64,000 bases of DNA, taken from assembly GCA_030432295.1 (NCBI GenBank), contig JAUIHI010000014.1, forward strand, positions 62,001 to 126,000. The letters are read 5' to 3'. This document shows, piece after piece, positions 3,771 through 32,318 of the stretch (position 1 is its first letter; every line of letters begins with the position of its first letter). The stretch is from Anaerolineae bacterium. Lineage in GTDB: Bacteria; Chloroflexota; Anaerolineae; Caldilineales; Caldilineaceae. Below the pieces are notes generated by a model. The model was not told the origin of the DNA. It saw nothing but the letters and a program-made list of their open reading frames with translations, and did not search any database. A program made the translations under genes and the position numbers.

Positions 3771-5102
3771 TTATTGCCGACTCCCCTGGGGCAGCTTCGC
3801 CAGCTCCTCCCGCACCAGCCGCACCACCAGCCGGTCCAGGGTGTCCACCGAATAGTTGTCCACGTCGTGGGTGGTCTCTGTGCCGGGACCGCTGGTGGAA
3901 TCGCTGCCGTCCTCGTAGGTGAGGAAGACGAACTTGCCGCCGGTGAACTGGGCCATCTGCCGGAAGATGTACTCGCCCTGCTCGTCCAGGCCACTGGCCC
4001 CCACCGGGAAGATTTTCACGCCCATCCCCACCGCATCGATCATATCCGTGTCGTAGGCAAAGCGCTCCTGATAGTCCAGGTGGGGCGGGGCGTCCGCCAC
4101 CAGAATCACCAGCCGCACTGCATCCTCGCCGGTCCAGTCGGAATTGTGCAGGGCCGTGTGCAGGGCTTCGCTGAGGGCTTCGGGATAGTCGCCGCCGCCG
4201 TCCGCCCGCAGCCGGGAAAGCTGCTTCTGGAAGAGGTTGAGATGGCTGGTGAACTCCTCGGCCTTGACCACATAGGCGTCGCCCCGGTCCCGGTAGGAGA
4301 CCAGACTGTAGCGCACGCTGGGCTGTTCGGGCAGGCCGTCGATCTGGCTGGCAATCTCGGCGATGGAATTAGTCAGCTTCTCAATTTCATCCGACATCGA
4401 ACCGGTGGCATCGACCAGAAAGAGTAGGTCCAGTTGGGTGCGGCCCGCGGCGGGCGGGTCGATAAGGGTAATCGTCCAGCGGCTCTCCTGGCGGGAGAAT
4501 TGCTGGCGTTGGGCCACATAGCCTTTACTGGCCGTAACAAAAAAGGTCTGGGTGCGTGGGCTGACATCCAGCGCACGGGGGTGGAAGAAGAGACGTCCGC
4601 CTGCATCCGTGCGGCCAGTGAAGATGACCTGCTGCTGGTCACCGTAGACTTCGACCGTAGCGTCGTGGACCGGCTCGTTGTTCTCATCCCACACCTGCAC
4701 AGCAATGCGCTCGCTGATATCCCGCTCATTCACCCACAGATAGTCGTGGCGCGCCCGGTAGTCGAGATAGTCGTTCCACTGCTCGTTGTCGTCCACCACA
4801 CCGGCTGTCACCGGCTGGACAGGGCGCTGATTATCGTAGGGCACAGGCGTCGGGCCGCGGTGGGAAGAGGGCGCAGATGATGCATCTGTTGCTGGTGCGG
4901 CAGAGGCCGGTCCACTGGATGGACGGACGCTTTCGGCCTCAGGAGCCGCGGCCGCGGGTGCTTCAACGGCTGCCGATTCACCGACGCCGGATGCAGCAGG
5001 TGCAGATGCAGGGGCAGCCATCGGGGCCGCGCATCCACTGAAAAGAATCGCAACAATCAAAAGTAGCACGTGCGCACGAAGGGATTTCGGCTGGCTCTGC
5101 AT
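3771..5102 (-). CDS. VWA-domain lipoprotein
   Basis: A 443-residue predicted lipoprotein. Residues 8-23 are a hydrophobic signal ending in the lipobox LFSGC, with Cys24 as the lipidated residue. Residues 25-90 are an Ala/Pro/Ser linker. About 130-215 looks like a carboxypeptidase-regulatory/Big-like beta domain (IAVQVWDENNEPVHDATVEV). From ~223 to 420 lies a von Willebrand A domain with an intact MIDAS start, D231-x-T-G-S-M. AAGGAG lies 7 bases before the ATG. It probably sits on the outer face of the membrane and binds a partner protein in a metal-dependent way. No operon partner is visible. Confidence 0.85.
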   Translation of the reverse strand: MQSQPKSLRAHVLLLIVAILFSGCAAPMAAPASAPAASGVGESAAVEAPAAAAPEAESVRPSSGPASAAPATDASSAPSSHRGPTPVPYDNQRPVQPVTAGVVDDNEQWNDYLDYRARHDYLWVNERDISERIAVQVWDENNEPVHDATVEVYGDQQQVIFTGRTDAGGRLFFHPRALDVSPRTQTFFVTASKGYVAQRQQFSRQESRWTITLIDPPAAGRTQLDLLFLVDATGSMSDEIEKLTNSIAEIASQIDGLPEQPSVRYSLVSYRDRGDAYVVKAEEFTSHLNLFQKQLSRLRADGGGDYPEALSEALHTALHNSDWTGEDAVRLVILVADAPPHLDYQERFAYDTDMIDAVGMGVKIFPVGASGLDEQGEYIFRQMAQFTGGKFVFLTYEDGSDSTSGPGTETTHDVDNYSVDTLDRLVVRLVREELAKLPQGSRQ

Positions 5103-5310: not shown

Positions 5311-6561
5311 TCAGGTTTCACGTTTCGACTTTCCTTTCCAAAGTATGGGCCATACTGCCGCCACCACCAGCGTCAATAATGCCGACAGGCCGGCCTGCAT
5401 CCCAACCGTCCACGGCGCGCCGATGCGCTCGGCCAGCAGACCCGTCTGCAATTCACCGGGCAGCCCCGCGCCTTGGGTCAGGACGACCGTACTCAGCGCC
5501 CGGCCCCGCATCTCGTCGCTGGCCGTTGTGAGAAGAATTGTGGCGCGCAGGGTGTGGAAGCCCGCCTGTCCCAGCCCAGCCACAAAGAGCATTGCCCAGG
5601 AGAGGGCAAAAGAGGGCGAGGCGGCAAAGACGACCAGCGCCACACACTCCACCAGCGCGCCGACGGTAAAGAGCAGGCCGATGCTGGCGAAGGGGCGCAG
5701 GCGCAGGACGACGTATAGCCCCACAAATGTGCCCAGGCTGTAGCCGCTGGTGAGCAATCCCAGCCCCACCGGTCCCCAGCCCAGCACATCCCTGGCAAAG
5801 ACGGGCAGCAGGCTCATTGACGGGAAAATCAACACATTGAGGGTGATAGAAATAAGGGTCACGGCCAGGAGGGTCGGGTTGTCCGTCACATAGCGTACCC
5901 CTTCGCCCAGGCTGGCCCACAGGGATTGGCCACCGACAGCGACTGTACGGGCCACCTCCTGGCGGGAGAAGAGCCAGAGGATCGCCAGATTCACGCCAGT
6001 CAGCGCCAGCATCACGCCGATGCTCAGCCCCGGCCCGTAACGCTCCAGCAGCCAGCCCGCGGCGTAGGCGCCGATGCTGCCCACCAGCCCCTGGGTGAAG
6101 CTCTCGACCAGCATCGCATCCGCGGTCTGTTCCCGCCCCACCAAATCCGGGGTCAGGGCTGTACGCGCGGGCATATCCACTGTCCAGGCCGCGCCGATGG
6201 CAAAGGCGGCCACCGTCACCTGCCAGGCAGCCAGCTGATCCCCGGCCAGGAGGATCAGCACCCCAGCGCAGGAGAGGAAGATACAGCCTTGGGTCACCAG
6301 CAGGGTCGTGCGCCGTCCCAGCCTATCGCCGATGGGACCGGCAAAGCTGCCCAGAATCAGTTGCGCGGCCCGTCGCCAGAAGGTGAGCATCGCCACGGCC
6401 AGGGCCGAGTCGGTCATATCCAGCACCAGCACCCCAGCCACGACTGTCCACATAGAGAGTGTCTGCCACCAGAGCGCGCTGCTCCACAGCAGGCGGCGGT
6501 AGGCGGGGAAGGTGAGGGGTACGAGGACGGCGGGGAGGCGGGGGGAAGGGGATTGGGTCAT
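5311..6561 (-). CDS. MFS transporter (EntS/MFS_3-like)
   Basis: A 416-residue integral membrane protein with about 12 hydrophobic segments. The loop GPIGDRLGRRTTLL matches the conserved MFS motif between helices 2 and 3, and the start LTFPAYRRLLWSSALWWQ resembles the enterobactin-exporter/tetronasin subgroup. It probably exports a small molecule across the cytoplasmic membrane; the substrate is unknown. No clear Shine-Dalgarno precedes the ATG, so the start is the least certain part. Two other MFS proteins in the window (15658, 39872) are from different subgroups. Confidence 0.85.
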   Translation of the reverse strand: MTQSPSPRLPAVLVPLTFPAYRRLLWSSALWWQTLSMWTVVAGVLVLDMTDSALAVAMLTFWRRAAQLILGSFAGPIGDRLGRRTTLLVTQGCIFLSCAGVLILLAGDQLAAWQVTVAAFAIGAAWTVDMPARTALTPDLVGREQTADAMLVESFTQGLVGSIGAYAAGWLLERYGPGLSIGVMLALTGVNLAILWLFSRQEVARTVAVGGQSLWASLGEGVRYVTDNPTLLAVTLISITLNVLIFPSMSLLPVFARDVLGWGPVGLGLLTSGYSLGTFVGLYVVLRLRPFASIGLLFTVGALVECVALVVFAASPSFALSWAMLFVAGLGQAGFHTLRATILLTTASDEMRGRALSTVVLTQGAGLPGELQTGLLAERIGAPWTVGMQAGLSALLTLVVAAVWPILWKGKSKRET

Positions 6562-7000
6562 TGGGTGATTTCGATAGTGGAGGATTGGAGTTCAGCAGAG
6601 ACCAGCGCCGGTTGTCGTTGCCCCTCACCACCCCCTAGCCAATGGGTGGAAGGTCGGTTGTTGGCGGGACGCCCCCTCCCCTCCCAGAGATGGCGATAGT
6701 TCGTCAGTGGCGTTGGCTGCGCTGGGAGAGGAGGGGGTTGGGCACGATTAGTGCATTTCGTCATCGACGCCTGCGCACCCACCGACGCCCGGTTCGTTAT
6801 CGACAGACACCCCTCCCCCAGCCCGACCAACACCCCCCACCCGCCAACGCCCTGACAGGGAGAGTGGCCGGGAGTAAGCGCAACAACCCTCACTCCCCAA
6901 TCCCCATAGCGCACCTTCTCCTCCGGCGTCAACTCCAGTGGGTTGAGCTACCCTGATCGAACTCATATTCCAGAAGCAGTACACGCACGTAGTTCACTAT
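6562..7000. other. 439-bp gap with C/A-rich low complexity; possible gene remnant
   Basis: No convincing gene. On the minus strand near 6945-6880 there is coding-like sequence (LLEYEFDQG in one frame, ELTPEEKVRYGDWG in the next) separated by a stop/frameshift, which could be the relic of a short gene. The rest is rich in CCCCTCC/GGGAGGGG tracts, with the ends of the flanking minus-strand genes on either side. Confidence 0.35.
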
Positions 7001-9412
7001 CTATCCCTCCAATACCAACAAAGGGAGCGAAATGATAAAAGTGGTACCCTCGCCGACAACACTAAAACAACGAATGTCACCCCGGTGTCGGCGAAAGATC
7101 AGTCGACAACCGAATAGTCCACCGCCACGGAGCGCGCTCGATCGGTCCTTTGTACTGAAGCCTAAATCAAAGATACGCGAAAGCAGGTCGGGGGGGATGC
7201 CGGGTCCAGTGTCTACAACACTCACTTTGATCTGACGCTCTTCAATTTGATAACTTAGCGCCAATGTTCCCTCTCCCCGCATCGCCTCACACCCATTCTC
7301 AATAACTGACTGGAAGGCATCGCAAAGTATCTCCTGGTTTCCAGATATCCACAGCGCATGTTTCCAAAGCGGCGGTTTAAACTGAATATTCCCGCTAGGC
7401 AACACCAGTTGACAGGCTTGCTCCACCACGCAGCGTAGATCTAATTGCATAAAAGGTATGTGTCCTAGCCCTGTAATTGCTGTTAGTTTTTCGACCAATC
7501 CGAAGATACTGGCAATACGACGCTGAATCCGATCCAATGCAGTTAACCTGTCAGAGGATAGATCGGTGTCATCACGACGGGCAATATCCAGATTATAGGG
7601 AATATCCCCAATCGCGTTCGAAAGTCGGTGGCTAATGACAAAAGCCACTTCTTGCAGTTCCATTATCCGATCCAACTCCCGCTGGTAGGCTGCTTCCTTC
7701 TCTTTTTCTGTTGCTCGAATATGGGTTTCACTGGCCTCGATCAATCCCATCAACGAATCGCTGGCCCCGCCAACTTCCTGGCTATCGGGCTGGGCCAGCC
7801 AGCGCAAAGCTCCGTCCAGTTCCACCGGGTCGAGCAGACCGCCTGCCCGTTCCAGTTCTTCCCAGCGCTGGGCCGTGGACTCCAGCCGTCGCCGGGTCTG
7901 TTCGGCGGTACGGCGTTCGCCGATCCAGCCGCGCAGCAGCGCCCAGCCGCCGATGAGGGCCTCGTGGGCGATGTCCACCCGGCGTGTCGTCTCACCTTCA
8001 CCCCCGCTGGCGGTGAGCAGGCGGCGGTCGATGAGTGTCTGCAATGTGCTGGCAAAGAGGGCTGGGTCGTCGCCTGTCGCGCGCAGGTCGGTTTCGGCCA
8101 CCTGGCGGCGGGTGTCAGCCCGCCCCTCGCCAAACTGGATCAGGCGCAAAAAGATGCGCCGAGCAATCGGCTGGGCGGTCGTGGGCAGATTACTGTAGAC
8201 CACACTGGCCCGGCGGTCGATGGCAATTTGCAGACCGTTGCGCTCGCCCTCGGCCATGCCCGCGTAGGCCGCGGCGGGCAGGTAGCGCCGGGCCACTCCC
8301 TGCCAGAGCAGACGCAGACACTCCTGCACCAGAGGCAACGCCCCCTTTTCCCCCGCGGCGTCGCCGGTTAGCCGCTCCACCAGCAGGGGATCGACACTCA
8401 CCTCCACCTGGGCCGCGGGCTGCACAATCGCCGCGGCCAGTTCGGCCCGTCCCAGGGGTGGCAGGTCGAGCCGATTGGCCCCGATGGCAGGCCAGAGAGT
8501 GCAATCCATCAGTTCCGGGTAGAAGTCAGCGCGCACGGTGAGCAGAATGTGCAGATTGGGCTGGCCGATGAGGGCTTGCAGGGCATCGAGGAAGGGTTGG
8601 ATTTGGGCAGGATCGGATTGGGTGAAGAGTTCCTCGAATTGGTCGATGAAGAGGAGGGTGCGATTTCCCGGTAGAGGCGCGGACTGTAGAGACGCAAAAT
8701 TTTGCGTCTCTACGCCCAGGGCGGTTAGCGGTTTTGCGCCGGGACGCAGGGTGCAGATGTCCCAACCGCCGCTTCCGAATTGGCGGGAACGGCCCAGGGC
8801 GGGGATGACGCCGGCGTAGACGAGGGAGGATTTGCCGCTGCCCGATGGCCCGATGACGCAGAGGAAGGGGTGCAGGCGCAGGCGCTTGACCGCGTCGGCG
8901 ATCTCCCGGTCCCGGCCAAAGAAGAGGCTTTCCTGCTCGGTCGTAAAGGGGGTCATACCGGGATAGGGGCAGTCGGGAACTTCCTGGGCCGGGGCCAGGG
9001 GCGCATCAAGCAGCCGGGCGATCTTTTCCAGCGCGGCGGGCCAGCGTTCCGGTGTGGTGGCGTCCACCTCTACCTGATGTTTGAGGCGCAGGGGCAGTTC
9101 GACGGGTTGCAGAATCAGCGGCACAACCGGCCAGCTTCCCTCCCGGTTGCCGTGAAAGGTCGCGAGCAGATCGACAAATTCGCCGAAGCGGTCGCCTGTC
9201 CAGGCCGGGCTGAGGACGAGGACGACGTAGCGGCTCTGCACGACAGCCCGCTCGTACTCCTTCAGTAGGGGCACACCGGGCCGGAACTCCTCCTGTGTCA
9301 GGACGTTCAACCCGGATGCGCGTAGGGCATCGAGCAGATAGCCGTCCACCCAGGCTTCATCAGCCGGGGCGTAGGAGAGAAAGATGTCGTAGACGGGCGG
9401 TGATTGGGTCAT
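7001..9412 (-). CDS. TIR - STAND NTPase - histidine-kinase fusion protein
   Basis: An 803-residue cytosolic protein. Residues 7-135 form a TIR-like domain (YDIFLSYAPADEAWV; a Glu in GEFVDLL is a candidate NADase residue). The linker CPYPGMTPFTTEQESLFFGR (148-167) is typical of nSTAND1 ATPases. Walker A is GPSGSGKSS (188-196), Walker B LLFIDQFEE (253-261), and a helical STAND module runs to ~540. Residues 560-585 are a charged coiled coil. The C-terminus is a histidine-kinase core: a phospho-acceptor-like FVISHRLSNAIGDI (His595), N-box IENGCEAM (N706), D-box DTGPGIPP (734-741), F-box FDLGFSTK and G-box GGGLFG. STAND proteins usually carry WD40 or TPR repeats here, so the kinase tail is unusual. 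A role in sensing and triggering a cell-death or defence response is inferred. Confidence 0.85.
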   Translation of the reverse strand: MTQSPPVYDIFLSYAPADEAWVDGYLLDALRASGLNVLTQEEFRPGVPLLKEYERAVVQSRYVVLVLSPAWTGDRFGEFVDLLATFHGNREGSWPVVPLILQPVELPLRLKHQVEVDATTPERWPAALEKIARLLDAPLAPAQEVPDCPYPGMTPFTTEQESLFFGRDREIADAVKRLRLHPFLCVIGPSGSGKSSLVYAGVIPALGRSRQFGSGGWDICTLRPGAKPLTALGVETQNFASLQSAPLPGNRTLLFIDQFEELFTQSDPAQIQPFLDALQALIGQPNLHILLTVRADFYPELMDCTLWPAIGANRLDLPPLGRAELAAAIVQPAAQVEVSVDPLLVERLTGDAAGEKGALPLVQECLRLLWQGVARRYLPAAAYAGMAEGERNGLQIAIDRRASVVYSNLPTTAQPIARRIFLRLIQFGEGRADTRRQVAETDLRATGDDPALFASTLQTLIDRRLLTASGGEGETTRRVDIAHEALIGGWALLRGWIGERRTAEQTRRRLESTAQRWEELERAGGLLDPVELDGALRWLAQPDSQEVGGASDSLMGLIEASETHIRATEKEKEAAYQRELDRIMELQEVAFVISHRLSNAIGDIPYNLDIARRDDTDLSSDRLTALDRIQRRIASIFGLVEKLTAITGLGHIPFMQLDLRCVVEQACQLVLPSGNIQFKPPLWKHALWISGNQEILCDAFQSVIENGCEAMRGEGTLALSYQIEERQIKVSVVDTGPGIPPDLLSRIFDLGFSTKDRSSALRGGGLFGCRLIFRRHRGDIRCFSVVGEGTTFIISLPLLVLEG

Positions 9413-9483
9413 GGCAGGTCGGCGTGGGCTGGTGGCGGGACGGTCTAGCAGTCAGACAGTTTTGATTGGGATTAGCGACGCCA

Positions 9484-17152: not shown

Positions 17153-19136
17153 ATGCCCAACTACCTGACCTACCTGGACTTTGAGATCGACGTGCGCGCC
17201 GACGACGTGAACGGTGGCTACACTGTCGCCGTTGTCAGTTCGCCCGCGGGGGAAGAACGGGCCGTCGCCTTTCTGCCCTTCGGCGAATTGGAACTGAAGA
17301 ACCGCCTGCTGGAATTGCAAAACGCGCTGCTCCGTTCCGGCGGCGTGCGTCGTCGGGGGCTGACCGTCCACGAACAGACCGTCCAGAACTTTGGCAAAGA
17401 ACTCTTCGACTTTCTGTTGCCCGGCGAAGTGCGCAGCCTCTACCGCACGAGCCGGGGCAAGGCCGTGGCCGGGGGACAAGGACTACGCCTGAAACTGCGC
17501 ATCAGGTCCCGCCGGCCCTGGCCGCCCTGCCCTGGGAATTTCTCTTCGATTCCGCCCACAACGAATATCTCTGCCTCTCCACCCAGACGCCTCTGGTGCG
17601 CTATTTAGAACTGGCCCACCCGCCCCAGATTCTGGCCGTGACCCCACCCCTGCGCATTCTGGGGCTGATCGCCAGCCCGGAGGGACTGGACAGACTGGAC
17701 GTGGAACTGGAGAAGCAGCGGGTGGAGAAGGCACTGGCCGATCTGCTGGCCGACGGGCTGATCGAACTGCACTGGCTGGAGGGCCAGACCCGGCGGGACC
17801 TGCAGCGGGCCATGCGGCGTGGCCCCTGGCACATCTTTCACTACATCGGCCACGGCGGTTTTGACCCCATCCACCAGGAAGGATTGCTCTTTCTGGCCGA
17901 CGCCGCGGGCCAGGCCGAGGCCCTCACCGCCCGTCAGCTCGCTACGATTCTGGGCGATCATTCCTCCCTGCGCACAGTCTTTCTCAACGCCTGTGAGGGA
18001 GCGGCCAGCAGCCAGACCGACCTCTTCTCCGGCACAGCCGCCACACTGATGCGCCGGGGCATCCCCGCGGTGCTGGCTATGCAGTACGCCATCACCGACC
18101 GGGCCGCCATCGAATTCACCACCACCCTCTACGAGAGCCTGGCCGATGGCTACCCGGTGAACGCGGCTGTGACCGAAGCCCGCAAAGCCATCTCCCTGGC
18201 TGTCAACCATTCGGTGGAGTGGGGCACGCCGGTGCTGCATATGCGCGCGCCGGATGGACAGATATTTGAACTGCAAGGCGGAGGGGAAGGCAAAAGGCAA
18301 AACGGAGAAGGCAAAAGTGGTAGTGGCGTTGTGCCGGTTGTGGAGGTGGTTCGAGTACCCGCGGAAGTAGCGACGGTGCGGGCGTCAGTTGTGACGCCCC
18401 CAGCACCCCAATCGCCCATCCAAATCGATTGGGTGACGATCCCCGCCGGGGAATTTTTGATGGGCAGCGACCAGGCCAAGGATTCGATGGCATACGACGA
18501 TGAATTGCCCCAGCACCGGGTCTATCTGCCCGAATACCGCATCAGCCGCACGCCGGTGACAAACAGCCAGTATTTACATTTTGTCGAGGCAAAAGACAAC
18601 CAATACTGGCGCGTTGGAATGACGGCAAGATTCCGAATGGCAAGGAAGATCACCCGGTCGTCACTGTCTCCTGGCACGACGCCCAGGCTTTTTGCAGATG
18701 GGTTGGGGCGCGCTTGCCCACGGAAGCGGAGTGGGAAAAGGCGGCACGGGGCACGGATGGGCGCATTTGGCCCTGGGGCAATGAATTTCCGACCGTTAGC
18801 CACGGCAACTTTGACCGCAATGTTGGCTCGACAACGCCGGTCGAGATGTACCCCGCGGGGGCCAGCCCCTACGGAGTGCTGGATATGGCGGGTAACGTTT
18901 GGGAGTGGACGCAAAGTCTGTGGGGGAAAAATTCCCAGGAACCGGAGTACGGCTATCCCTACCGGTCAGGTGATGGACGTGAGAACCTACAGGCCACCGA
19001 CGACGTTCGTCGTGTGTTGCGTGGGGGGGCGTTCGTCGTCGACCATTCCGACGTGCGTTGCGCCTGTCGGAACAAGCTCTACCCGGACTTCTGGAGAGGG
19101 TACTTCGGGTTTCGTCTCTTTTCCCCCGGCAGTTGA
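17153..19136 (+). pseudogene. CHAT protease-FGE-sulfatase (C-type lectin fold) fusion, split by two frameshifts
   Basis: Read with two one-base corrections it gives ~661 residues. The first frame runs from ATG 17153 to ~17502 (N-domain like that of the CHAT gene at 13804). The CHAT core continues in a second frame (PALAALPWEFLFDS; His in HYIGHGGFD, Cys in FLNACEGA) to ~18618. A third frame completes an FGE/SUMF1 domain (DWVTIPAGEFLMGS...LPTEAEWEKAARG...GNVWEWTQ) to 19136. Restoring one C near 17503 and one A near 18619 recovers family-like sequence at both breaks. FGE domains use a C-type lectin fold for ligand display; CHAT is the protease effector. If the breaks are real the gene is dead; if they are sequencing errors it is an intact sensor-protease fusion. 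The tail resembles a DGR variable region. Confidence 0.8.
19020..19136 (+). other. Candidate DGR variable region at the end of the FGE domain
   Basis: From RGG (19020) to GFR (19107) the scaffold positions match FGE domains while the intervening codons are almost all NNY: TTC GTC GTC GAC CAT TCC GAC, TGC GCC TGT, CTC TAC, GAC TTC, TAC TTC. That is what adenine-directed mutation of AAY codons in a DGR template would give. No template repeat or reverse transcriptase was seen in this window. Confidence 0.5.
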
Positions 19137-19249
19137 TCCTCTGTCCTCTGTTTTTCTCTGGTCTCTGGCAAACGATGGCACTCTGTGCTTTTGCCCGGCT
19201 GCCGCGCAGCCAAGCCGGGCGGGGGTCTGGGGGCGCTGCCCCAGTGCGC

Positions 19250-19275
19250 ATCGCCGTCAGGCGATCTATTTTTTT
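19250..19275 (+). terminator. Intrinsic terminator after the CHAT-FGE gene
   Basis: ATCGCC (19250-19255) and GGCGAT (19260-19265) flank a GTCA loop, followed by CTA and a run of T to 19275. Confidence 0.65.
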
Positions 19276-19301
19276 TAGATAGAACAGCCCCGCTCGTCGG
19301 C

Positions 19302-28316: not shown

Positions 28317-31300
28317 TTACCGCAGCACCAGGGGTAGATAGATCTCCTGGACCGGTGCCAACACCAGATCCAGATCCGTCACCGCCGGGGGCACACCCAC
28401 CACCGGGCTGGTCAGGGGAGCGTAGTCCGGGGCCGTCACCCGCACATACCAGCACCCCTCAGAGACATCCCAGCCGTAGTAGCCGATCTCGTTGGTCTGC
28501 TGCTGGGCGATCTGCGGGGAGATGGGTGCCAGATCCGGGTTGACAATCATGCCCAGTGTGGTGGGGGCTGGCTGGCTCCAGGCCGCGCCCGGGGCCTTGG
28601 ACAGATTGGACTCGCAGGTGTTGGGCCGGGTGTCCGTGGGGCCGGTGCGGGGCAGCCAGCCCGGCACCTTGTAGAGAGTCACTGTGGCCCCCACCACGGG
28701 CTGGCCGCTCTGGGCATCGGTGATGATGCCGCTGGGATCGTAGAGAGTGACCCGGCCCACCGGCGTCTCCTGGGCAACCGCCTCACATTTATACGAGACC
28801 GCAAGGGTGGCCGCCACCACGTCCGCGGCTGGGATGGTGGCCTGATAGAGGTCACTCCCGCTCCCGGTCATGGGATAGTTCGTCCCCGGCGGGGTCATCA
28901 CCAACATCACATCCGTCGGCATTGTGCCGCCTGTGCAGGTGACCGGCAAAGTGATGGCGATGGGCGTTCGTGCGCCTCGCCATTGTGTGATGTTGACCGT
29001 ACCGTCCGGGCTGAAGGTCACGGTGCCGCCGGTCTCCACGCCAACCGTCGGGGGCACGGGCAGACGCAGCACCGCGTCCACGCCCGTGCGCACCTGGCCC
29101 AGGGTAACCGTCACCGGCGTGGACTGCTCCCGAAAGAAGTTGTCGTCGTAATACTGGGAGGCATACTGGCCCGCGGGATCCACAAAGTGGACCCGATAGT
29201 CGATGTCCTGACCCAGGCCACCGAACGCGTACCCCCCATCCGGGCCAGTGAGGGTGCTGGCAACCGCCAGCCATGTCTGCCCCTGCTCCCCCTGCCCCTC
29301 CCCGGCCAGGGGACGGTAGAGGGCGACCTGGATGCCAGGGGCAGCTCCCCCTGTGGCCAGGGTGGCCTGTCCGCTGATCCCGCCAGCGGGTTGACCGCAG
29401 ATCAGCCCGGTGCCCGCATACTCAATCCCGGCCAGCCATGTGGCCACTGGCCCGGTGGCTGGCGCACACCAGCCCGTGTCGTAGAAGGTGAAGGGGCTGG
29501 TGAAGAACCAGTCGCCCACGCCCAGAGCTGGCAGATTGGTGAGGAATTGGGGCACTTCGCCAATCAGAGGGTTGCCGTGCAGGTGCAGATACTGCAACTC
29601 GGCCAGGTTGCCCAGTTCTTGCGGTAGACTGGTGAGTTGATTGCCGTCCACATAGAGTTCCGTCAGCGCTGAGAGAGAACCGATCTGGGTCGGCAGTCCG
29701 GTCAGCAAGTTGTTGGACAGGCCGAACCACCGCACCTTGGAGAGCGCGCCGATGGTGGACGGCAAGTTGGTCAGTTGATTGTTGGCCAGACCCAGACCGG
29801 TCAAGGCCGTCAAATTTCCGATTTCGGATGGAACGCTGGTCAATTGGTTTCTGTCCAAGTTGAGCCAGGTCAGGGCGGTCAGATTGCCAATTTGGGGCGG
29901 CAGACTGGTCAATTGATTGTTGCTCAAGGTGAGCGAGGCCAGGGCCGTGAGGTTGCTGATCTCCGGAGGCAAAGCGCCCGCCAATCGATTTTCGTACAAC
30001 GACAACCAGTTGACCCGACCTCCGCTGCACGAAACCCCATACCACTTACACGGGGTGTTGGTTTGCAACCAGTCTGTCTTGTTGGTCCAGTCCTCCCCGC
30101 CCGTGGCGGTATAGAGGGTCACTAATCCCTGGCACTCGGCTGTGGGGATCTCGGTCACATCCCCACAACTGAATCCAGTTGCGCCCCGGGGCTCCAGATA
30201 GGGATAGCCGTCGTTGCGGGTGCCCGCCACATCTTCTTTCCAGATGTCCTGGAAATCCCACTCCACATAGGTGTCTGCGGCGTGGGGAGAGGTCATCTGG
30301 GCGGTAGTTCGGCCCACTACCCCGTCACCGCCGGCACTGGTAAGCTGGCCGGAGGTCTGGGTATCCCAGTAACAGTCAGACACAGAGGTGCCCGCACCCT
30401 GGCCGATGAAGCCCCCCACGTTGTCGCCGGTTCCGCTCACCGGTCCGGTGCTGTAGGATCGTTCTACCTTCCCGGTCTTGATCTGCCCGATCAATCCGCC
30501 CGCACTCTCCCCGCTGCTGACTGCGGCCCGGCTGTAATTGTCAGATATGATTGGGGTGTTTATGCTCACGTATCCCACCAACCCGCCGACCTGTTGCGTG
30601 CCTTGGACGCTGCCTGCGCTGTAGCTATGGCGGATCTCTCCACCGTTAATCGCACCGAACAGGCCGCCTGTGGCTGCACCACCCTCCACTGTGGCCGTCA
30701 CCGCCACCCTGTGCAGAATGCTGAGGTTCATGGCCCCAGCCAGCCCGCCCACATCCTGCCCCGGCGCGCCGTTGATTGCCCCGGTGACGGTGAGCTTCTC
30801 AATCAGGCTGTCGAACCCAATCACGCCGGCCAGTGTGCCGCTGTGGGAGCGGGTTTGCAGGTTCACATCTTGCAGGTGGAGATTGAACAACTGCGCCTCG
30901 CTGACTGTCCCAAAAAGTCCCTGATGGGACGAGTTGGGGCGATTGATAGCCAAGTTATGAAGGGTATGCCCGCCGCCGTCAAAATTGCCGGTGAAGGGGG
31001 TTGCCGTATCCCCAATCGGCGACCAACCCCGACCATAGTCCCAGACCACCGTGTCGGCCAGATCCACATCTGTGGTGAGCCAATAGCTGGCGTCCAGGTT
31101 CTGGCGCATGGCGTTCAGTTCGTGGATATTGGTGATCAGATAGGGGTCTTGCATGGAGCCGTTGCCCGCTAGATCGGCCAGATCCACGGGCTGGGGCTGG
31201 GCGTATCTGTCCAGATTCTGGAAGACCGGATAGCCACTGCCTGCGTCCATCGCCCACAGGGCAGCGAAGTTGAAACGAGGATAGGTGGCCTGCTGCTGCA

Positions 31301-32318
31301 TCTGGGCGGTAGTTCTTCCCATCACCCCGTCGCCGCCTGAGCTGGTGAGCTGGCCGGAGGTCTGGGTATCCCAGTAACAATCAGACACAGACGTGCCCGC
31401 CCCCTGGCCGATGAAGCCACCCACGTTGTCGCCCGCGCCGCTCACCGGCCCGGCGCTGTAGGATCGCTCGACGATGCCGCCGTACAGATATCCGAACAGA
31501 CCGCCCGCACTCCCCCCGCTGCTGACTGCGGCCCGACTGTAGCTGTCGGATATGATCGATGTGTTGGTGCCGCCCACGTATCCCACCAATCCACCGACCT
31601 GTTGCGTGCCCTGGACGCTGCCCGCGCTGTGGCTATGGCGGATCTCTCCGCCGTTAATCACACCGAACAGGCCGCCTGTGGCTGCGCCTCCCTGCACCGT
31701 GGCCGTCACCGCCACCCTGTGCAGAATGCTGAGGTTCATGGCCCCAGCCAGCCCGCCCACATCCTGCCCTGGTGCGCCGTTGATCGCCCCGGTGACAGTG
31801 ACCTTCTCAATCAGGCTGTCGAACCCAATCACGCCGGCCAATGCGCCACTGTGGGAGCGGGTTCGCAGGTTCACATCTTGCAGGTGGAGATTGAACAACT
31901 GCGCCTCGCTGACTGTCCCAAAAAGCCCCTGATGGGAAGAGTTGGGGCGGTTGATGGTCAAGTTGCGAATGGCATGCCCGCTGCCATCAAAACTGCCCGT
32001 GAAGGGGGTTGCCGTATCTCCAATCGGCGACCACCCCCCGCCCCCATTCCACGGATCGACGCCCAGATCGATGTCCGCCGTCTGCCGAAAATAGGCGTCC
32101 AGGTGATCACGAATACTGTTTAGGTGTGCCGCCGTGGCCACCAGATACGGATCTGCTTCGGTCCCAGATCCACCGGCAAAGGCTTGGGCCGCGTCAACAC
32201 TTAGCGTAGCCTGAGATCCTACGGCTACCAACGTCAAACAGAGAATACCGAGACAGATCAGGAAGGTACGCCCCAGAGACAGGCCAAACCTTCGTCGAGA
32301 AAAACACCAGGATTTCAT
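28317..32318 (-). CDS. Giant secreted GLUG-repeat/LRR protein
   Basis: 1333 residues. A signal peptide (hydrophobic ~15-33) ends near Ala43-Ala46. Two GLUG-type beta-repeat blocks follow (about 47-370 and 385-720), with repeated signatures like VGGLVGYV, TGGLFG, YSAGSVQG and YWDTQTSG. The blocks are the product of a recent ~1-kb internal duplication. Next is a leucine-rich repeat array (~754-933; LTALTWLNLDRNQLTSVPSEIG and kin), then Ig-like/CNA-B-type beta domains (GGISGQATLATGGAAPGIQVALYR; GIITDAQSGQPVVGATVTLYKV). It ends in EIYLPLVLR. GLUG and LRR regions usually mediate adhesion or surface binding. It is probably displayed outside the cell and has no enzymatic motif that I can see. Confidence 0.88.
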   Translation of the reverse strand: MKSWCFSRRRFGLSLGRTFLICLGILCLTLVAVGSQATLSVDAAQAFAGGSGTEADPYLVATAAHLNSIRDHLDAYFRQTADIDLGVDPWNGGGGWSPIGDTATPFTGSFDGSGHAIRNLTINRPNSSHQGLFGTVSEAQLFNLHLQDVNLRTRSHSGALAGVIGFDSLIEKVTVTGAINGAPGQDVGGLAGAMNLSILHRVAVTATVQGGAATGGLFGVINGGEIRHSHSAGSVQGTQQVGGLVGYVGGTNTSIISDSYSRAAVSSGGSAGGLFGYLYGGIVERSYSAGPVSGAGDNVGGFIGQGAGTSVSDCYWDTQTSGQLTSSGGDGVMGRTTAQMQQQATYPRFNFAALWAMDAGSGYPVFQNLDRYAQPQPVDLADLAGNGSMQDPYLITNIHELNAMRQNLDASYWLTTDVDLADTVVWDYGRGWSPIGDTATPFTGNFDGGGHTLHNLAINRPNSSHQGLFGTVSEAQLFNLHLQDVNLQTRSHSGTLAGVIGFDSLIEKLTVTGAINGAPGQDVGGLAGAMNLSILHRVAVTATVEGGAATGGLFGAINGGEIRHSYSAGSVQGTQQVGGLVGYVSINTPIISDNYSRAAVSSGESAGGLIGQIKTGKVERSYSTGPVSGTGDNVGGFIGQGAGTSVSDCYWDTQTSGQLTSAGGDGVVGRTTAQMTSPHAADTYVEWDFQDIWKEDVAGTRNDGYPYLEPRGATGFSCGDVTEIPTAECQGLVTLYTATGGEDWTNKTDWLQTNTPCKWYGVSCSGGRVNWLSLYENRLAGALPPEISNLTALASLTLSNNQLTSLPPQIGNLTALTWLNLDRNQLTSVPSEIGNLTALTGLGLANNQLTNLPSTIGALSKVRWFGLSNNLLTGLPTQIGSLSALTELYVDGNQLTSLPQELGNLAELQYLHLHGNPLIGEVPQFLTNLPALGVGDWFFTSPFTFYDTGWCAPATGPVATWLAGIEYAGTGLICGQPAGGISGQATLATGGAAPGIQVALYRPLAGEGQGEQGQTWLAVASTLTGPDGGYAFGGLGQDIDYRVHFVDPAGQYASQYYDDNFFREQSTPVTVTLGQVRTGVDAVLRLPVPPTVGVETGGTVTFSPDGTVNITQWRGARTPIAITLPVTCTGGTMPTDVMLVMTPPGTNYPMTGSGSDLYQATIPAADVVAATLAVSYKCEAVAQETPVGRVTLYDPSGIITDAQSGQPVVGATVTLYKVPGWLPRTGPTDTRPNTCESNLSKAPGAAWSQPAPTTLGMIVNPDLAPISPQIAQQQTNEIGYYGWDVSEGCWYVRVTAPDYAPLTSPVVGVPPAVTDLDLVLAPVQEIYLPLVLR
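30296..31029. repeat. Internal tandem duplication, copy A
   Basis: Copy A of a ~1.0-kb-period duplication inside the GLUG gene. It matches 31301-32037 with long exact stretches (for example CTGGCCGGAGGTCTGGGTAT and GAACAACTGCGCCTCGCTGA occur in both), offset 1005-1008 bp. Confidence 0.9.
31301..32037. repeat. Internal tandem duplication, copy B
   Basis: Copy B, the N-terminal one in the protein. Differences from copy A are mostly substitutions plus a few codon-length indels that explain the 3-bp change of offset across the unit. Confidence 0.9.

What the first reader, a model, noticed from the sequence alone, without database searches (positions are those of the whole stretch)
7001..9412. 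TIR-STAND ATPase fused to a histidine-kinase module
TIR and STAND NTPase modules normally end in sensor repeats such as WD40 or TPR. Here the sensor position is taken by a complete-looking histidine-kinase core (phospho-acceptor-like H595, N, D, F and G boxes). The protein may link an NAD-cleaving TIR to two-component signalling, or the ATPase may regulate TIR activity by a new route.
Basis: partly seen in the sequence, partly recalled or inferred. Interest (0 to 1): 0.78.

Follow-up and report, generated by a model that had tools for sequence, protein, structure and literature searches.

The report
Immune-type receptor with swapped-in kinase tail
A bacterial receptor-like protein of a kind linked to immunity has recently had its sensor tail replaced by the kinase end of another signalling protein; both parents and the scar can be identified, but this is a single case and nothing shows yet that the hybrid works.

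Summary
The 803-aa ORF at 7001-9412 (-) carries TIR (10-131), nSTAND1 (149-523, E 1e-98) and a histidine-kinase core (HATPase_c 692-798, E 2e-17; DHp-like hairpin with H595; predicted fold matches WalK, HK853 and ZraS). It is not an established architecture but a recent chimera. A same-genus genome has the syntenic ortholog (86% identical over residues 1-586) with a transmembrane helix and WD40 tail. In the window a low-GC block of about 0.77 kb (6944-7711) replaces the WD40 region. It holds the end of a histidine-kinase gene and the first ~12 codons of the response-regulator gene behind it; the last 54 nt of the WD40 gene survive just downstream. The donor type is a rare operon: AAA-like ATPase / AAA-GAF-HK / REC-TCAD9. 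No intact donor kinase, REC-TCAD9 or WD40 remainder was found in the genome, and no second fusion elsewhere. The TIR has Val80 where the catalytic glutamate should be, so NAD cleavage is unlikely. A link to two-component signalling is possible but unsupported: the cognate regulator is only a stub. An assembly error is unlikely (two non-homologous joins needed) but not excluded. Interest is modest.

The parts
7001..9412 (-). Chimeric gene: TIR - nSTAND1 - coiled coil - histidine-kinase core, 803 aa
9020..9385 (-). TIR domain (residues 10-131); Val80 (codon 9173-9175) at the catalytic-glutamate position
7844..8968 (-). nSTAND1 NTPase (residues 149-523), Walker A at 191 and Walker B at 253
6944..7711 (.). 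Swapped-in block: 49% GC (6944-7700) against 66% in the TIR-STAND part; replaces about 2.65 kb of the ortholog (L077 2976-5630). 5' break about 7640-7711, 3' break about 6944-6962
7466..7654 (-). DHp-like helical hairpin (residues about 587-649) with phospho-acceptor candidate H595 (codon 7628-7630)
7019..7339 (-). HATPase_c / CA domain (residues 692-798) with N, G1, F and G2 boxes
6929..6997 (-). Stub of a response-regulator gene (GTG start, MNYVRVLLLEYEFDQGSSTHWS*); homologous to the start of REC-TCAD9 'MHYARILLLEDEPD' in L078; donor homology ends about 6963
   Evidence: sequence
6890..6943 (-). 54-nt remnant of the 3' end of the WD40 gene, 89% identical to the last 53 nt of the ortholog including its stop
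5311..6561 (-). MFS transporter gene, syntenic neighbour also found beside the WD40-tailed ortholog in L077

Best explanation
The gene is a recent, lineage-specific chimera. Its ancestor was a TIR-nSTAND1-transmembrane-WD40 receptor. Illegitimate recombination replaced the TM/WD40 region with a horizontally acquired, lower-GC fragment: the 3' end of the histidine kinase of an AAA-GAF-HK / REC-TCAD9 operon plus the first ~12 codons of its response-regulator gene. The break lies in the coiled-coil stretch after nSTAND1, so the reading frame and probably the helix run on into the DHp hairpin. Likely working (inferred): nSTAND1 stays the ATP-driven oligomerisation switch, the DHp coiled coil imposes dimerisation, and the CA domain can bind ATP and perhaps phosphorylate H595. 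The TIR acts as an assembly or adaptor domain, not as an NADase. With the WD40 sensor, the TM helix and the cognate response regulator all gone, the protein most likely lacks its original input and has no dedicated phosphorelay output: it is either a fusion not yet weeded out or a rewired receptor whose new input is unknown, the former more likely. Shown: domains, parentage, junctions, loss of partner genes, loss of the TIR glutamate. Inferred: all activities.
For: Ortholog in G405 (same genus): 86% identity over 1-586, frame 1498 aa, TIR-nSTAND1-WD40; nt match 7714-9427, then 6890-6943 to its last 53 nt, then the MFS gene. TM-like peak (KD19 3.0) at residue 604 of the ortholog, none that strong in the window protein. 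Tail: 58-59% aa identity to the C-terminus of the 940-aa AAA-GAF-HK in G403 and 37% in G419, nt match 6968-7536 running through the kinase stop into the REC start; the next gene there is REC-TCAD9. Composition step (GC3 0.76 to 0.47). In the own genome, listed 100% complete, searches found no donor kinase apart from the tail, no REC-TCAD9 and no WD40 part of this ortholog apart from the remnant and two weak 70-96 nt matches. Remnant: 6 of 54 differences against pS 0.38-0.53 in the gene, P about 1e-5 or less if it had drifted since the split. TIR Val80. Helix 550-614 across the junction, in a low-confidence model.
Against: No reads, second assembly or expression data. The young age means an intact ORF is weak evidence either way on function; a neutral, dying gene and a functional rewired receptor cannot be told apart here. 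The direct donor lineage was not found (best 58-59% aa, with higher GC).
Confidence: 0.75

Rival explanations
1. Functional rewired receptor: the HK core is now the regulatory tail of the STAND switch, its ATP binding or autophosphorylation controlling nSTAND1/TIR assembly, or STAND oligomerisation driving H595 phosphorylation and transfer to an orphan response regulator in trans.
For: All kinase boxes, Walker A/B and the reading frame are intact; in its donor-type operon this kinase core also sits behind an AAA ATPase (plus GAF), so coupling of an ATPase to this DHp is native; the junction lies in a coiled coil.
Against: Young fusion, so an intact frame does not show selection; cognate REC only a stub and no REC-TCAD9 found in the genome; no second genome with the fusion; GAF input modules not carried over.
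Confidence: 0.17
2. Assembly artefact: the contig joins a TIR-nSTAND1-WD40 gene to a fragment of an HK/REC operon from another strain or organism in the sample.
For: Probably a metagenome-assembled genome (61 contigs; close relatives are MAGs); the tail has foreign composition; single occurrence; WD40-like matches lie at two other contig ends, so repeats may break this assembly.
Against: Needs two joins without a shared repeat, both inside non-repetitive sequence, keeping frame at one and leaving a clean 54-nt WD40 end and synteny at the other; neither the rest of the WD40 gene nor the rest of the HK operon was found elsewhere in the assembly.
Confidence: 0.08
3. NAD-consuming TIR receptor gated by two-component signalling.
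For: TIR fold and HK core both present.
Against: Catalytic Glu position is Val80, within a sub-clade that lacks the Glu throughout, while six other TIRs in the same alignment have Glu there; the review PMC7282519 states that all examined prokaryotic TIR NADases need this Glu.
Confidence: 0.04

Closest known systems
TIR-nSTAND1-WD40 receptors (NLR-like STAND proteins; nSTAND1 named in PMC8195603)
   Same: TIR and nSTAND1 in the same order; syntenic ortholog at 86% identity over residues 1-586
   Different: WD40 and TM segment replaced by a histidine-kinase core; TIR lacks the catalytic Glu, as do its close relatives
AAA(AAA_35)-GAF-HK / REC-TCAD9 operons (L078, L079, L129, L131)
   Same: The tail is a homologous DHp-CA core followed by the start of the REC gene
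   Different: AAA, GAF domains and the REC-TCAD9 partner are missing; tail fused to TIR-nSTAND1 instead
Multidomain kinases joining Ser/Thr kinase, GAF and histidine kinase, such as cyanobacterial HstK (PMC2176072)
   Same: Histidine kinase at the C-terminus of a large multidomain protein (similar GAF-PAS-HisKA-HATPase ending in the plasmid protein L108)
   Different: No TIR; GAF/PAS between the modules; long-established families
vWA-MoxR ternary conflict systems (PMC7159879)
   Same: TIR, STAND, REC and APH-like modules mixed in predicted conflict systems
   Different: The authors report no histidine kinases among the vWA-associated effectors; nothing here shows that this gene belongs to such a system, although a vWA-domain protein is encoded nearby at 3771-5102

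Membership tests
Histidine kinase core (HisKA/HATPase_c) | HATPase_c with N, G1, F, G2 boxes | tested here: met
   E 2.2e-17; motifs; fold
Histidine kinase core (HisKA/HATPase_c) | DHp dimerisation hairpin with phospho-acceptor His | tested here: met
   H595 aligned with the phospho-acceptor of 4i5s, hairpin in the AF2 model; Pfam HisKA not hit, so support is from alignment and fold
Histidine kinase core (HisKA/HATPase_c) | Cognate response regulator | tested here: not met
   only a stub at 6929-6997; no REC-TCAD9 found in the genome. An unrelated orphan regulator cannot be excluded
nSTAND1 STAND NTPase | nSTAND1 domain with Walker A and B | tested here: met
   E 1.1e-98
nSTAND1 receptor with sensor tail | C-terminal sensor domain (WD40, TPR, FGE lectin-like) | tested here: not met
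   WD40 present in ortholog L077 and FGE in L080, absent here
TIR NADase | TIR fold | tested here: met
   TIR_2 E 4.5e-15
TIR NADase | Catalytic glutamate of the WxxxE motif | tested here: not met
   Val80
TIR NADase | NAD cleavage | not testable with these tools
   needs biochemistry
Conserved TIR-STAND-HK family | Same order in independent genomes | tested here: not met
   no other case in 400 phylum genomes, 40 relatives and the fetched loci; loci are short and the genome survey is a sample

The most novel reading that the evidence does not exclude
A naturally rewired NLR-like receptor in which a histidine-kinase DHp-CA core took over the sensor/regulatory role of WD40 repeats, so that kinase ATP binding or His phosphorylation gates nSTAND1 and TIR assembly.
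Probability: 0.17. Interest if true: 0.65.

Novelty: new variant of a known kind. Interest (0 to 1): 0.36.

Why it matters
It is a scarred, relatively datable example of how bacterial NLR-like receptors change tails: both parent types are recognisable, the cut is in a coiled-coil linker, and a stub of the donor's next gene and the last bases of the lost sensor gene remain. It supports tail exchange as a route of receptor evolution (relatives here carry WD40 or FGE tails) and warns that a strange domain order in one genome may be a recent accident. It also points to a TIR-nSTAND1 sub-clade whose TIR is probably not an NADase, and to a rare AAA-GAF-HK / REC-TCAD9 operon type.

Tried and rejected
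Viral contigs: no relative of the tail and only two weak nSTAND matches. Plasmids: no record covers 80% of the protein; tail matches are ordinary sensor kinases. Full-length AF2: mean pLDDT 49, so packing of the kinase on the STAND module cannot be judged. The 28-nt palindrome at 8686-8713 was considered as a mobile repeat behind the swap and rejected: single copy in the genome and also in the ortholog. Literature searches found no TIR-STAND-histidine-kinase architecture described; the library is partial, and a search for Detocs gave no primary paper.

Full report
Observation. The ORF at 7001-9412 on the minus strand codes for 803 aa. Pfam gives TIR_2 10-131, nSTAND1 149-523 and HATPase_c 692-798, all above curated cut-offs. 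Pfam HisKA is not hit, but a profile of the tail and its two closest relatives aligns with solved histidine kinases and places H595 on the phospho-acceptor position of 4i5s. An AF2 model of residues 558-803 (pLDDT 79.7) matches histidine kinases over nearly its whole length. The tail is a real DHp-CA core by sequence and predicted fold.

Where the tail came from. Base composition falls from about 66% GC in the TIR-STAND part to 49% in the tail, third-position GC from 0.76 to 0.47. In the same genus, G405 has an 86% identical protein over residues 1-586 that continues as a WD40 protein of 1471 aa, after a strongly hydrophobic segment at residue 604. The nucleotide alignment runs 7714-9427, stops, and resumes at 6890-6943 with the last 53 nt of the WD40 gene, followed by the same MFS gene. 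Between the two anchors the window holds about 0.77 kb in place of about 2.65 kb. That block matches, through the kinase stop codon and into the next gene, an operon in G403: a 940-aa AAA-GAF-HK protein and a REC-TCAD9 protein. The REC gene is cut after about 12 codons and reads into the WD40 remnant, ending at a stop at 6929. The kinase tail is 58-59% identical to the G403 protein. The direct donor was not found and was probably of lower GC.

The 5' junction lies within residues about 568-590. There both parents code for a Glu/Ala-rich helix, so the exact crossover cannot be fixed. The 3' junction lies at about 6944-6962.

Age and selection. TIR and nSTAND1 are under purifying selection against the G405 ortholog (dN/dS 0.09 and 0.15), but most of that history predates the swap. 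The WD40 remnant, non-coding since the swap, differs at 6 of 54 positions, while synonymous sites in the gene differ at 38-53%. Drift since the species split would rarely leave so few (P about 1e-5 or less; 0.01 with the lower rate of the MFS gene). The swap is therefore young, and an intact frame says little about function.

One-off or family. No other gene with both nSTAND1 and the tail appears among 400 phylum genomes searched with the whole protein at E 1e-30, 40 relatives, or the 62 nSTAND1 and 86 kinase ORFs in fetched loci. The class-wide search with the tail profile brought up one clearly related kinase, in G513. This and G438 carry the same operon type; a search of 400 phylum genomes at E 1e-45 found no further copy. 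Limits: loci are often cut 1.5 kb from the match, and the genomes are a sample.

Assembly. A false join would need two breaks in non-repetitive sequence, one in frame, and would be expected to leave pieces elsewhere. Searches of the assembly found neither the rest of the WD40 gene, nor another copy of the kinase, nor REC-TCAD9. The REC-TCAD9 blank is one empty search, and the tool notes that such a blank has no positive control. I put an artefact at about 8%.

TIR. The W/F-x-x-x-E stretch reads F76-G-E-F-V80. Ungapped alignments with TLR chains put V80 on the Glu of WCxxE. In the family alignment the TIR-nSTAND1 proteins of this sub-clade have V, T, L or I there, while six other TIRs in the set, one from the same genome, have Glu. 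All examined prokaryotic TIR NADases require that Glu (PMC7282519). So the TIR is most likely an assembly or adaptor domain. This rests on sequence only.

Mechanism. Shown: domains, parentage, junctions, missing partners, missing TIR Glu. Inferred: nSTAND1 remains an ATP-driven switch; the DHp brings dimerisation; the CA domain binds ATP. In the donor-type operon the same kinase core sits behind an AAA ATPase and GAF domains, so mechanical coupling to an ATPase is plausible, but the GAF inputs did not come along. With sensor, TM helix and regulator gone, I consider a fusion not yet weeded out, or one of slight effect, more likely than a working new receptor (about 0.17 for the latter). The full-length model is too poor to judge packing.

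Comparison. Predicted conflict systems mix TIR, STAND, REC and APH-like domains, but Kaur et al. report no histidine kinases among vWA-associated effectors (PMC7159879), and related work describes receiver domains acting without histidine kinases (PMC8195603). Modular target proteins with nSTAND1, TIR and FGE domains are described in multicellular bacteria (PMC10907252). The present gene is thus a new variant of a known kind, seen once.

Noticed in passing
L078, L079, L129, L131: Rare operon type: AAA-like ATPase, AAA(AAA_35)-GAF-HK, REC-TCAD9 (with an APH-like kinase hit); domains tested by Pfam in L078 only, the others by eye. Possibly an undescribed two-component conflict system.
   Followed up: partly
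window 8686-8713: Perfect 28-nt palindrome GTAGAGACGCAAAATTTTGCGTCTCTAC inside the nSTAND1 coding sequence, identical in the G405 ortholog, single copy in the genome.
   Followed up: partly
L080 4264-6840: Same-genus TIR-nSTAND1 protein with an FGE-sulfatase tail instead of WD40: another tail of the same receptor type.
   Followed up: partly
window 17596-19278: CHAT protease-like domain followed by a partial FGE-sulfatase match (profile 4-76 of 255), possibly truncated; conflict-system type protein in the same window.
   Followed up: no
G000:C58 185228-185323 and G000:C14 34-104: WD40-like matches at contig ends, suggesting that WD40 arrays break this assembly.
   Followed up: no
window 28317-32318: 1333-aa protein with leucine-rich repeats, GLUG motifs and an M26 N-terminal region match.
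   Followed up: no
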